35,887 nucleotides of DNA from Actinomycetota bacterium (GTDB taxonomy: Bacteria > Actinomycetota > Thermoleophilia > Solirubrobacterales > Solirubrobacteraceae): contig VAWK01000018.1 of NCBI GenBank assembly GCA_005885515.1, positions 1-35,887 of the forward strand, in the 5' to 3' direction. The notes beneath the pieces are model-generated. The model was not told where the DNA came from. It did not search any database and was given only the letters and a program-made list of their open reading frames with translations. The position numbers and the translations under genes were made by a program. How positions within the stretch are numbered: position 1 is the first letter of the stretch; the number at the start of each line of letters is the position of its first letter. This document shows positions 1 to 16,560 of this stretch, in pieces.

Positions 1-33
1 TGTCGGCTCGTCGCATCCTGGGGGTGGAGTTGC

Positions 34-101
<68 letters not shown>

Positions 102-823
102 ATGTTCCGTTGCTGTCTATAAATTCGGCTATATGCTGGAAAACCCGTGGATCCCGCATTACTCGTAGCGTCTGTTCCGACCGAACGGATCCCTACAGTG
201 AAAACATGTCGGGTGCGGACAATCAGCAGGAAAGGCTGGATGGCTACATCGCGGGCTACGTAGATGGCGAGGGCTGCTTTGCGGTCGCCGTCAATCGCAA
301 TCCCAGCTGCCGCAGTGGATATCAGCTCGTTCCTGAGTTTCATGTCAGCCAAAACGGCGACAGATCTCAGGTACTGAGTGTGATTCGCGAGCGGTTTGGG
401 GGTTGCGGCTACATCAAGCCCAACGGAAGGAAGGATCGTGCCCTGGTGTACGTCGTGAGGCGGCGTGAGCACCTGCTGGAGCATGTGATCCCCTTCTTCG
501 AGCGTACGCCGCTTATGTCTTCCAAGCAGGAAGACTTCGGGAAGTTTGCGGCGATCGTTCGGTCCATGGCTCTCGGTCACCATCGCACCGCGAGCGGATT
601 TTCCCGGCTTCTAGACGAAGCTCTGTCGATGAACGGGAATGGCCGCTTTAGAAGCGTGCGCTGGAAGGAGCTCCTAGCAGCCGTCCAGAATCCTCAGAGA
701 CTGTACGCCGAACGCGAAGAATGATGCCTTCGCGAAGATACAGTCCGAGCTGCATGGCGACATGCAGAGCTAGGCAGAAATGACCTAGCCCGGAGCCTGG
801 TGCAGGCTCCGGTAACAAAACTG
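102..823 (+). ncRNA. Group I self-splicing intron in 23S rRNA, inserted after E. coli position 2604
   Basis: Removing 102-823 restores the universal rRNA sequence gacagt|tcggtcc. The 5' exon ends in U and the intron ends in G, as in group I introns. Core helices can be paired by eye. P1: gacagt 96-101 with gctgtc 112-117, with the expected U-G wobble at the splice site. P3: 124-129 with 707-712. P4: tgctg 134-138 with cagca 224-228. P7: gactgta 699-705 with tacagtc 739-745. P8: 713-719 with 728-734. P10: ccg 107-109 with cgg 825-827. Three more hairpins follow at 750-767 (GCGA loop), 769-789 and 791-811. The P, Q, R and S conserved elements are all recognisable. Splicing would be needed for a working ribosome from this gene copy. 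Confidence 0.95.
206..724 (+). CDS. LAGLIDADG homing endonuclease encoded in the 23S intron
   Basis: This 172-residue protein has a single LAGLIDADG motif, YIAGYVDGEG, at residues 14-23, so it should act as a homodimer. Enzymes of this type cut intron-less alleles and so spread the intron. The start at 206 was chosen because the protein then begins MSGADNQQERLDGYIAGY, the usual form for endonucleases in 23S introns; the frame is open further upstream to 92 but that would run into the 5' splice site. The gene overlaps the ribozyme core at both ends: the Asp-Asn-Gln-Gln-Glu codons are the Q element (P4 3' strand), and the last codons form R, the P7 5' strand, P3 and P8. The TGA stop lies in the P8 loop. 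Its expected target is the rRNA sequence around 2604. Catalytic activity is inferred. Confidence 0.9.
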   Translation: MSGADNQQERLDGYIAGYVDGEGCFAVAVNRNPSCRSGYQLVPEFHVSQNGDRSQVLSVIRERFGGCGYIKPNGRKDRALVYVVRRREHLLEHVIPFFERTPLMSSKQEDFGKFAAIVRSMALGHHRTASGFSRLLDEALSMNGNGRFRSVRWKELLAAVQNPQRLYAEREE

Positions 824-954
824 TCGGTCCCTATCTGCCGTGGGCGCTGGAGAATTGAGAGGAGTTGTCCCTAGTACGAGAGGACCGGGATGAACACACC
901 TCTGGTGTATCTGTTGTCCTGCCAAGGGCACCGCAGGTTAGCTACGTGTGGAGC

Positions 955-987
<33 letters not shown>

Positions 988-1185
988 GACCTCGAGATGA
1001 GTTCTCCCATCCCCTAGAGGGAGTAAGACCCCTGGTAGACCACCAGGTTGATAGGCCGGATCTGGAAGAGCGGCAACGCTCGAAGGAGACCGGTACTAAT
1101 GGGTCGAGGGCTTGACGGATTTTTGTGATGCCCGTGTGGCGCTGTGCAGTTTTGAAGGACCGGGAGCGGCGGTCTCTCGACGCTT

Positions 1186-1301
1186 TCCGGTGGCCTTGGC
1201 GAGGGGGAAACACCTCTTCCCATTCCGAACAGAGCAGTTAAGCCCCTCAGCGCCGATGGTACTTGGCCCGCGAGGACCTGGGAGAGTAGGACGCCGCCGG
1301 T
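1186..1301 (+). rRNA. 5S rRNA
   Basis: Recognised by the conserved internal segments cccattccgaacagagcag and gttaagcccctcagcgccga, and by the closing helix: ccggtggc at 1187-1194 pairs with gccgccgg at 1293-1300 (one U-G pair). The length of about 116 nt fits the family. It lies about 70 bases after the 23S gene, as in a standard rRNA operon; the 1119-1185 spacer holds no tRNA. Ends are accurate to within a base or two. Confidence 0.96.
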
Positions 1302-1342
1302 TTTTTTGTGACGGGCCGCCTTCGGGCGGCCCGCGGCTTTTT
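1301..1342 (+). terminator. Intrinsic terminator of the rRNA operon
   Basis: A 9-bp perfect GC stem, 1312-1320 with 1325-1333, is closed by a UUCG tetraloop. It is preceded by seven T (1301-1307) and followed by a five-T run (1338-1342). Its place directly after 5S fits the end of the rRNA transcript. Confidence 0.85.
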
Positions 1343-15039: not shown

Positions 15040-16560
15040 TTGGCTCAGGTAGGAATCGCGGAGCTGCTGCAGGCCGGCGTCCACTTCGGCCATCAGACGC
15101 GTCGCTGGAATCCCAAGATGCGCCGCTTCATCTACGGCGAGCGGGGCGGCGTCTACATCATCGACCTGCTGAAGACCTCGGCGCTGCTGGCGCAAGCGCA
15201 GGCGTTTGCCGCCGAGCTTGCACACCGTGGCGGGACGGTGCTGTTCGTGGGCACCAAGAAGCAGGCGCGTGACACGATCCGCGACGTCGCCGAGGCGGCG
15301 GATATGCCCTACGTGAACCACCGCTGGCTTGGCGGTCTGCTCACGAACTTCCAAACCATCAGCCTTCGCATCAAGCGACTGCACGACCTCGAGCGGTATG
15401 AGGTCGAGGGTCAGCTCGAGCTGCTGCCGACGCGCGAGCGGATGGCCGCGCAAGCCGACCTTGTGAAGCTGCGTGCGAACCTGGGCGGCGTCAAGGACAT
15501 GCAGCGCGTGCCGGACGCCATGTTCGTGATCGACCTGAAGACAGAGCTGATCGCGGTGCGGGAGGCCCAGCGGCTACGGATTCCGATCATTGGCCTGGTC
15601 GACACGAACTGCGACCCCGACGGAATCGACTACGTGATTCCCGGCAACGACGACGCGATTCGCTCCTGCGCGCTGATAACGCAGGCGATCGGTCAAGTCG
15701 TATCCGAGGGCCACTCCGTTTTCCGGGCGGAGGAGCAGCGCGCCCGCCAGGAAGCCGCGGAGCGAGCTCGCCTCGAGGCCGAGGCGCGCGCCCGTCGGGA
15801 AGCCGAGGAGCAGGCGAGGCGCGAAGCCGAGGAGCGCGCCAGCGCGGAGGCAGCCGCGTCGGCCGCCTCCCAACCCGCGGGCGCGCCGGCCGCGCAGACC
15901 AGCGTGCCATCGGCCGCCGGTGCGCCATCGGCGCCACCCGCTGCGCCCGAGCGTGCGCCGAGCGAGCCAGCGCCGCCGGCCGAGGCCGCTGCTGCGCCGG
16001 TCCAGGCCCAGCCAGCCCCAGCGCCAGCCGAGCCAGCCGCAGCACCAGCCGAGCCAGCGGCCGCCGAGTCCGCGGCCGCCGCCCCGCCGCCCCAGAAGGA
16101 GCCAGCGGCAGCGCCAGCCGAGCCAGCCGCAGCGCCAGCCGAGCCAGCCGCAGCGCCAGCCGAGCCCGCGACCGCTGAGCCCGAGGCCGCTGCCGAGCGT
16201 GCCCAGCCAGAGCCCACGCCGGTGGCCGTTGGCACGGGCTCCGAGCGGGGTCAGGGCGAGACCACCGAGAACCCGCAGCCGAAGTCAAAGCCGGCCGGTA
16301 CTGCAACCGCCGAGCCGGACGCGAGCGCGTCGGCCGAGCGGGATCAGGCCGAGAAGGCGCCGGCCAAGAAGGCACGTACGAAAAAGGCGCCGGCCAAGAA
16401 AGCGCCGGCAAAAAAGGCACAGCCGCGCAAAGCGAAGGCCGCGCCCGCGGCCAATGGGGAGGAGTCGAGCGCCGCGCCCGTGGATGCGGCGGCGGGTGAG
16501 GCGGCAAACGCGGCGGCTGAGCCAGCGGGCGACGGTGCGGCGAAGGGCGGGAAGTCGTGA
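15040..16560 (+). CDS. rpsB: 30S ribosomal protein S2 with a very long C-terminal extension
   Basis: S2 binds the 30S subunit late in assembly. Residues 1-227 are a complete S2: [53 protein letters not shown] and [20 protein letters not shown]. The usual protein ends soon after this, but here the frame continues to 506 residues. Residues 229-268 are a charged, helix-forming Glu/Arg/Ala stretch; about 269-437 are Ala/Pro/Glu-rich with EPAAAPA repeats; 439-472 are Lys-rich with AKKAPAKKA repeats like those of histone H1 and mycobacterial HU. It starts at a TTG with a purine-rich site before it, and overlaps the tsf GTG by four bases. Confidence 0.96.
16030..16161 (+). repeat. 21-bp coding repeats (EPAAAPA) in rpsB
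   Basis: Units of 21 bp, such as gagccagccgcagcgccagc plus one base, lie at 16030-16050 and in tandem at 16099-16119, 16120-16140 and 16141-16161, with one or two mismatches. They encode the heptad Glu-Pro-Ala-Ala-Ala-Pro-Ala in the disordered part of S2. In-frame repeat length suggests slippage can change the extension length without breaking the gene. Confidence 0.9.

What the first reader, a model, noticed from the sequence alone, without database searches (positions are those of the whole stretch)
102..823. Group I intron in the peptidyl-transferase centre of 23S rRNA, two bases after A2602
The insertion after E. coli U2604 is exact: window base 1 aligns with U2504 and the restored exon junction is the universal sequence. 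P1, P3, P4, P7, P8 and P10 all pair by eye with the correct splice-site wobble. Introns at rRNA sites are known in bacteria but uncommon, and I cannot name a described intron at this exact site. The surrounding rRNA (gtcgtgagacag) is also the target region of I-CreI, whose intron inserts about 11 bases upstream in algae, so different introns appear to have hit one conserved target.
Basis: partly seen in the sequence, partly recalled or inferred. Interest (0 to 1): 0.72.

Follow-up and report, generated by a model that had tools for sequence, protein, structure and literature searches.

The report
Mobile intron in actinobacterial 23S rRNA
A ribozyme-type intron that carries the gene for its own DNA-cutting enzyme sits in the catalytic heart of this actinobacterium's ribosomal RNA; the kind, and in another bacterial group the exact site, are already in print, but we found no report of its spread through actinobacteria, where it is seen in several stages of gain and decay.

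Summary
It is a group I intron. Six helices (39 pairs) compared over 17 introns at this site pair in 98.4% of cells, and 23 pairs change on both sides. A covariance model built without the window finds it at 113 bits. Rfam's general model fails on the window (19.6 bits, cut-off 50) but passes for an ORF-less intron at the same site in the same genus (71.1 bits).

So this is a mobile intron.

The site is not new: insertions with LAGLIDADG genes at 2604 were reported in CPR bacteria in 2024 (PMC11270868). My paper searches found none elsewhere. Here it occurs in 10 of 316 Actinomycetota genomes. In the window's genus, of 11 genomes with a visible site, two carry intron and endonuclease, one an ORF-less intron, eight none. 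Two genomes carry inserts at 2593 and 2604, leaving an 11-nt exon. Splicing and cleavage are inferred.

The parts
1..101 (+). 23S rRNA 5' exon, E. coli 2504-2604; contig begins here
102..823 (+). group I intron L2604, 722 nt, begins after U, ends with G
824..1119 (+). 23S rRNA 3' exon, E. coli 2605 to the 3' end
206..724 (+). LAGLIDADG_1 homing endonuclease ORF, 172 aa, motif IAGYVDGEG (residues 15-23); start codon uncertain, frame also open upstream
96..117 (+). P1: exon GACAGU 96-101 with intron GCUGUC 112-117, U.G at the splice site
124..129 (+). P3 5' strand (partner 707-712)
   Evidence: 5 of 6 pairs change on both sides
134..138 (+). P4 5' strand (partner 224-228, inside the ORF)
   Evidence: 4 of 5 pairs change on both sides
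144..147 (+). P5 5' strand (partner 210-213), by eye
   Evidence: not counted for covariation
229..245 (+). P6/P6a 5' strand, in the first codons of the ORF (P6 GGA 229-231, P6a 236-245)
246..678 (+). L6: body of the endonuclease gene
   Evidence: the loop is short in the ORF-less L028, L069, L072, L073
679..693 (+). P6a and P6 3' strands, in the last codons of the ORF
   Evidence: 7 of 10 P6/P6a pairs counted change on both sides
699..705 (+). P7 5' strand (partner 739-745), guanosine site by family knowledge
   Evidence: covariation tested on 5 pairs, 2 change on both sides
707..712 (+). P3 3' strand
713..734 (+). P8 (713-719 with 728-734); the ORF stop 722-724 lies in its loop
739..745 (+). 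P7 3' strand
750..767 (+). P9 with GCGA loop
   Evidence: 5 of 7 pairs change on both sides
769..789 (+). P9.1 with GAAA loop
790..812 (+). P9.2 hairpin (variable among relatives)
1186..1302 (+). 5S rRNA downstream of the 23S gene

Best explanation
It is a mobile group I intron at 23S site L2604. In the precursor rRNA the intron folds (P3-P8 core), binds guanosine at P7, cuts after U2604 through P1 and joins U2604 to U2605, restoring the peptidyl-transferase loop around A2602 (inferred from anatomy; splicing not shown). The LAGLIDADG protein, translated from the intron or precursor, would act as a homodimer that cuts empty L2604 sites, so that repair copies the intron in (homing; inferred from family). 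The gene sits in L6 and its two ends are read through the ribozyme core, so core RNA constrains the protein's first and last residues. The locus goes through the known gain, decay and loss cycle: endonuclease-carrying, ORF-less and empty sites are all found within one genus.
For: Exact site. Six-helix structure over 17 same-site introns (16 distinct rows): 98.4% of 624 cells paired, 23 of 39 pairs with a change on both sides against a shuffled mean of 10.1, 0 of 500 shuffles as high; sliding the partners drops pairing to 26-37%. Model R1 from 10 relatives, window left out: 113.3 bits, E 9e-31, sole hit in the window at E up to 1; no hit at E up to 0.01 in empty L032 or E. coli L091; it hits the L2604 intron in 9 of 9 further Actinomycetota loci, L098-L106, one of which, L100, is the same as L003 in the model. 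ORF-less L028 of the same genus: RF00028 71.1 bits, cut-off 50. ORF: PF00961 E 2.2e-20, cut-off passed; fold nearest to 5gkk, the homing endonuclease I-TnaI. Purifying selection: dN 0.08, dS 0.94 against L002 over 141 codons; dN 0.20-0.23 against L029-L031 with dS 1.1-1.7. Only one 23S piece was found in the genome, the interrupted one. Genus: 3 occupied and 8 empty of 11 visible sites in 24 genomes.
Against: RF00028 scores the window only 19.6 bits, below its cut-off of 50; I put this down to the gene that splits the core. P10 is not conserved. The last dozen residues of the window's protein are read in another frame than in most relatives (phase 0 in window, L030, L031; phase 1 in L002, L003, L004, L029, L065, L067), so activity of this copy is unproven. 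In the 17-row comparison the P4 and P7 strands were found by sequence motifs, which favours pairing there; P3, P6a and the 3' half of P9 were taken by fixed offsets. The first codons of the stretch used for dN/dS lie in the ribozyme core, and dS is high or saturated in most pairs. R1 also hits introns at other sites. No RNA data.
Confidence: 0.95

Rival explanations
1. An intervening sequence that RNase III or another nuclease removes without ligation, leaving a fragmented 23S rRNA.
For: Such IVSs are known in bacterial 23S (PMC11270868, text seen); splicing is not shown here.
Against: A conserved group I core with covarying P3, P4, P6, P7, P9 and a fixed U.G at the junction; the same 3' junction in 10 of 10 Actinomycetota loci, the window among them; an 11-nt exon between two inserts in two genomes would be lost without ligation; a break beside A2602 would be in the catalytic centre.
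Confidence: 0.02
2. A dead intron copy in a 23S pseudogene or a mis-assembled contig, while an intact rRNA operon does the work.
For: The genome is a draft (79 contigs, 92% complete) and C49 starts inside the 23S gene.
Against: No other 23S sequence was found in the genome with two DNA queries; the same intron stands in L002 of the same genus and in other families; the gene is under purifying selection. The RF02541 search of the own genome found nothing, not even this piece, so that search says nothing.
Confidence: 0.03
3. The LAGLIDADG protein serves mainly as a maturase that helps its intron to splice, rather than as a homing enzyme.
For: The LAGLIDADG protein of a Thermotoga neapolitana 23S intron has maturase-like activity (PMC3984707, passage seen).
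Against: ORF-less introns stand at the same site in the same genus and phylum; the patchy distribution fits homing.
Confidence: 0.15

Closest known systems
CPR bacteria 23S insertion at position 2604 (23IS13 by order in the text), Tsurumaki et al. 2024, PMC11270868
   Same: Same E. coli position; group I introns; LAGLIDADG_1 genes; ORF-less versions too (section 5 part 1 and passages). My CPR loci have the same core and related genes.
   Different: The paper covers CPR and says group I introns at 23IS13 were not reported in any known bacteria; here the site is filled in Actinomycetota.
L2593 introns of cyanobacteria and archaea (PMC1995217, PMC6125680) and of green algal chloroplasts (I-CreI type, recalled)
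   Same: LAGLIDADG group I intron in the same rRNA loop, 11 bases upstream
   Different: Other site; the Synechococcus L2593 intron has P7.1/P7.2 extensions (PMC1995217 section 4), not seen here by eye. I-CreI itself was not compared with P0001.
I-TnaI, PDB 5gkk (host and L1931 site recalled; PMC1995217 Table 1 lists an L1931 intron in Thermotoga naphthophila)
   Same: Best fold match, TM 0.83 by target length, 38% identity
   Different: Different protein and, by recall, a different site
Synechococcus L1917 intron, PMC1995217
   Same: ORF runs from P6 through P7, P3 and P8 (section 4)
   Different: Here the ORF begins before P4' (in L5) and stops in L8

Membership tests
[quoted passage not shown]
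   17 of 17 introns
Group I intron | P3-P4-P6-P7 core with covariation | tested here: met
Group I intron | last intron base is G | tested here: met
   G823
Group I intron | passes Rfam RF00028 cut-off | tested here: inconclusive
   window 19.6 of 50 bits; same-site ORF-less L028 71.1, L093 65, L104 58
Group I intron | P10 with the 3' exon | tested here: inconclusive
   2-5 bp, no fixed place
Group I intron | self-splicing with guanosine | not testable with these tools
   needs RNA experiment
LAGLIDADG_1 homing endonuclease | Pfam PF00961 above cut-off and LAGLIDADG fold | tested here: met
   73.9 bits, cut-off 23.1
LAGLIDADG_1 homing endonuclease | acidic residue at the end of the motif | tested here: met
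   E22 of IAGYVDGEG, invariant in the 8 proteins aligned; its catalytic role is recalled
LAGLIDADG_1 homing endonuclease | cuts the empty target site | not testable with these tools
   needs enzyme assay
L2604 (23IS13) intron group of CPR | insertion after U2604 | tested here: met
L2604 (23IS13) intron group of CPR | endonucleases of the site form one clade | tested here: inconclusive
   one side of a branch, support 65/75, 15 proteins
L2593 (I-CreI) introns | insertion after U2593 | tested here: not met
RNase III-cleaved IVS | no ribozyme core and no ligation | tested here: not met
   core present; ligation itself not tested
Archaeal bulge-helix-bulge intron | BHB motif at the junctions | not tested
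   set aside because a group I core is present

The most novel reading that the evidence does not exclude
Actinomycetota are a living reservoir of the L2604 intron, in active homing cycle within single genera, and have exchanged it with CPR bacteria; and introns at L2593 and L2604 can occupy one gene together, leaving an 11-nt exon in the peptidyl-transferase loop that must be joined on both sides, perhaps in a set order, since P1 of the second intron uses six of those eleven bases.
Probability: 0.35. Interest if true: 0.6.

Novelty: new member of a known kind. Interest (0 to 1): 0.42.

Why it matters
It takes a site that was in print only for CPR bacteria (as far as my searches went) into Actinomycetota. 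One genus holds carriers with the endonuclease, an ORF-less carrier and empty sites, so the gain-decay-loss cycle of homing introns can be timed on a species tree. The double insert with an 11-nt exon poses a clear splicing-order question.

Tried and rejected
Rfam at the curated cut-off missed the window's intron; lowering the threshold gave a weak, partly misplaced hit. NCBIfam had no family for the ORF at E up to 0.01. RF02541 on the own genome found nothing although the piece is there, so it was not used as evidence. The pattern (with ATG) was too narrow: 1 of 296. In CPR, 12 of the 119 matching genomes had A or G after U2604, but three (G585, G599, G718) are empty sites with A at 2605, leaving 9; their loci L063, L064, L071 were dropped from the 17-intron comparison. 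In Pseudomonadota 2 of 299 matched: G520, the centre itself, and G931, a chance match that does not look like rRNA (secE by my recall of the protein). L004 (Methylococcaceae label) is a 6-kb contig beside two empty 23S pieces in the same genome and may be mis-binned; I do not claim Pseudomonadota. P10 tested and dropped. L005 and L066 gave no unbroken body for dN/dS and L072 no gene, so they are missing from that table; against L003, L065 and L067 dS was saturated. In the tree the row named L074_L1931 is really the L1951 gene of that genome, and the L1931 labels of L003, L004 and L005 are approximate. The occupancy patterns see only introns that start with A or G, or not with T and with no C four bases on, or with GCUGUCUAUAAA near P1; the counts are lower bounds, and an intron that starts with T, as in G608, would pass for an empty site where only one base is seen. 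Subgroup (IA, IB, IC) was not settled.

Full report
Site. The window starts inside a 23S rRNA gene and runs into 5S. Against E. coli K-12 rrlB (L091), window 1-101 is 2504-2604 and 824 onward is 2605 onward.

It is a group I intron. P1 pairs the last six exon bases with GCUGUC and puts U.G at the junction; the last intron base is G. I compared 17 introns at this site: the window, four loci from the genome scan (L002-L005), four from its class (L028-L031) and eight from the phylum of the CPR locus L005 (L065-L070, L072, L073). Over 39 pairs, 98.4% of 624 cells are standard pairs and 23 pairs change on both sides; no shuffle of 500 reached either figure, and sliding the partners by 1-3 columns lowers pairing to 26-37%. 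P3, for example, goes UUCGGC/GCCGAA, UCUGGC/GCCAGA, CUUAAC/GUUAAG. The P4 and P7 strands were anchored on motifs, so P3, P6a and P9 are the cleaner witnesses.

Covariance models. Rfam's RF00028 gives the window 19.6 bits (cut-off 50, E 0.029); about 430 nt of gene split the core. The ORF-less intron of the same genus, L028, scores 71.1, the L2604 introns of L093 and L104 65 and 58. A model of the 3' half made from ten relatives without the window finds window 689-815 at 113.3 bits and nothing else in the window. At E up to 0.01 it finds nothing in the empty L032 or in E. coli, and it finds the L2604 intron in L098-L106, 9 of 9 (L100 is the same sequence as L003, a row of the model). It also hits introns at other sites, so it recognises a wider group; one of eight empty-site loci of the genus, L082, shows such a hit at its end, far from the L2604 site.

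ORF 206-724 gives 172 aa with IAGYVDGEG, Pfam LAGLIDADG_1 at 2.2e-20. An AlphaFold model from eight aligned proteins has mean pLDDT 75.5; its best PDB match is I-TnaI, 5gkk, E 1.1e-11. The ORF body lies in L6. Its first codons contain P4', P6 and P6a; its last contain P6a', P6', P7, P3' and part of P8, the stop lying in L8. P6a, formed by the two ends of the gene, changes in step. The core at P6'/P7 is read in phase 0 in window, L030 and L031 and in phase 1 in L002, L003, L004, L029, L065 and L067; in L066 the ORF stops just before it (L005 gave no row). So the RNA is held and the protein tail drifts. The body is under purifying selection against L002 and L029-L031.

How common. In the window's class 120 of 249 genomes show the site and 5 are occupied. 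In its genus 11 of 24 genomes show the site: G000, G1155 and G420 occupied, eight empty (the eight junctions read). G1155's locus L083 is letter for letter the start of L002, whose GenBank title says Solirubrobacteraceae. G420's intron is 281 nt with no endonuclease gene. In the family 3 of 146 matched, plus G487, which that pattern misses. In the phylum 10 of 316 genomes, ten genera in six families, carry it; all ten, window included, have the same 3' junction. By a simple motif test, L098, L099 and L104 have no LAGLIDADG frame, L102, L103 and L106 only short ones (81, 58 and 104 aa), and L100, L101, L105 and the window long ones. In the CPR phylum sample 119 of 332 show the site, 9 of them occupied; a second pattern gave 6 of 314, with G608 added. 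In Pseudomonadota none was added beyond L004's own genome (299 searched).

History. In a tree of 15 endonucleases the ten from L2604 lie on one side of a branch with modest support (65/75); window with L002 (100/97), then L029 (83/73), then L030 with L031 follow host kinship. This fits either old presence with many losses or local transfers; I cannot choose.

Two inserts 11 bases apart. G608 (L093) and G081 (L104) carry inserts after U2593 (236 and 282 nt) and after U2604 (288 and 329 nt), leaving CGUGAGACAGU between them. In L093 both match RF00028 (65 bits, and 44.4 for the first, under the cut-off of 50 but E 2.3e-9). In L104 the L2604 intron matches; no separate match to the L2593 insert was listed by RF00028 or by R1.

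What is in print. PMC11270868 (section 5 part 1 read; passages) reports CPR 23S insertions with LAGLIDADG_1 at 2604, says group I introns at 23IS13 and others were not reported in any known bacteria, and describes ORF-bearing and ORF-less versions in a cyclic model. PMC1995217 (section 4 read) tabulates bacterial LAGLIDADG rDNA introns at L1917, L1931, L1951 and L2593. PMC6125680 (passages) lists archaeal introns; 2604 is not in the part of the table that I saw. PMC4853749 (passages) gives three 23S introns in Thiomargarita only in gene coordinates; their spacing suggests the 1917-1951 region to me. PMC8155191 (passages) reports three 23S introns in the proteobacterium IOLA with sites in a supplement that I did not see, so 2604 there is not excluded. 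Searches for L2604, 2604, Solirubrobacter, Actinobacteria, Thermoleophilia and site lists showed no report of this site outside CPR in what I opened; of the 11 papers I opened only PMC11270868. The library lacks most subscription journals, and supplementary tables were not open to me.

Verdict. A genuine mobile group I intron by anatomy, a new member of a known kind in a phylum where I found no report of it, with unusually complete stages of the homing cycle.

Noticed in passing
L093 (G608, CPR) and L104 (G081, Actinomycetota): Inserts after U2593 and after U2604 in one 23S gene leave an 11-nt exon CGUGAGACAGU; seen in two phyla.
   Followed up: partly
L074 (G420, same genus as the window): Its 23S carries three more inserts, read from the exons as after U1917, U1931 and U1951; model R1 hits two of them.
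   Followed up: partly
window 679-724 and relatives: The conserved P6'/P7 core is read in two different frames by related endonuclease genes.
   Followed up: yes
window base 1; L002 base 1: Two contigs of the genus start at almost the same 23S base (E. coli 2504 and about 2506); the rest of the gene was not found in the window's assembly. G420 shows no insert there.
   Followed up: partly
L063, L064, L071 (G585, G599, G718): CPR 23S genes with A instead of U at 2605, empty of introns.
   Followed up: no
L004 (G520): Methylococcaceae-labelled 6-kb contig with intron-rich 23S beside two empty 23S pieces in the same genome; possibly mis-binned.
   Followed up: no
L005 3618-4541; L068, L069, L073 downstream of the L2604 intron: A further insert near E. 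coli 2657 in CPR loci (L005 mapped; the others by eye).
   Followed up: no
L082 2918-3019 (G1154, same genus, empty at L2604): Model R1 hit cut off by the end of the locus: probably an intron at another 23S site.
   Followed up: no
window 15040-16560: ORF of 506 aa matches ribosomal protein S2 over residues 9-224 only; the rest is unexplained, perhaps an extension or a high-GC over-long frame.
   Followed up: no
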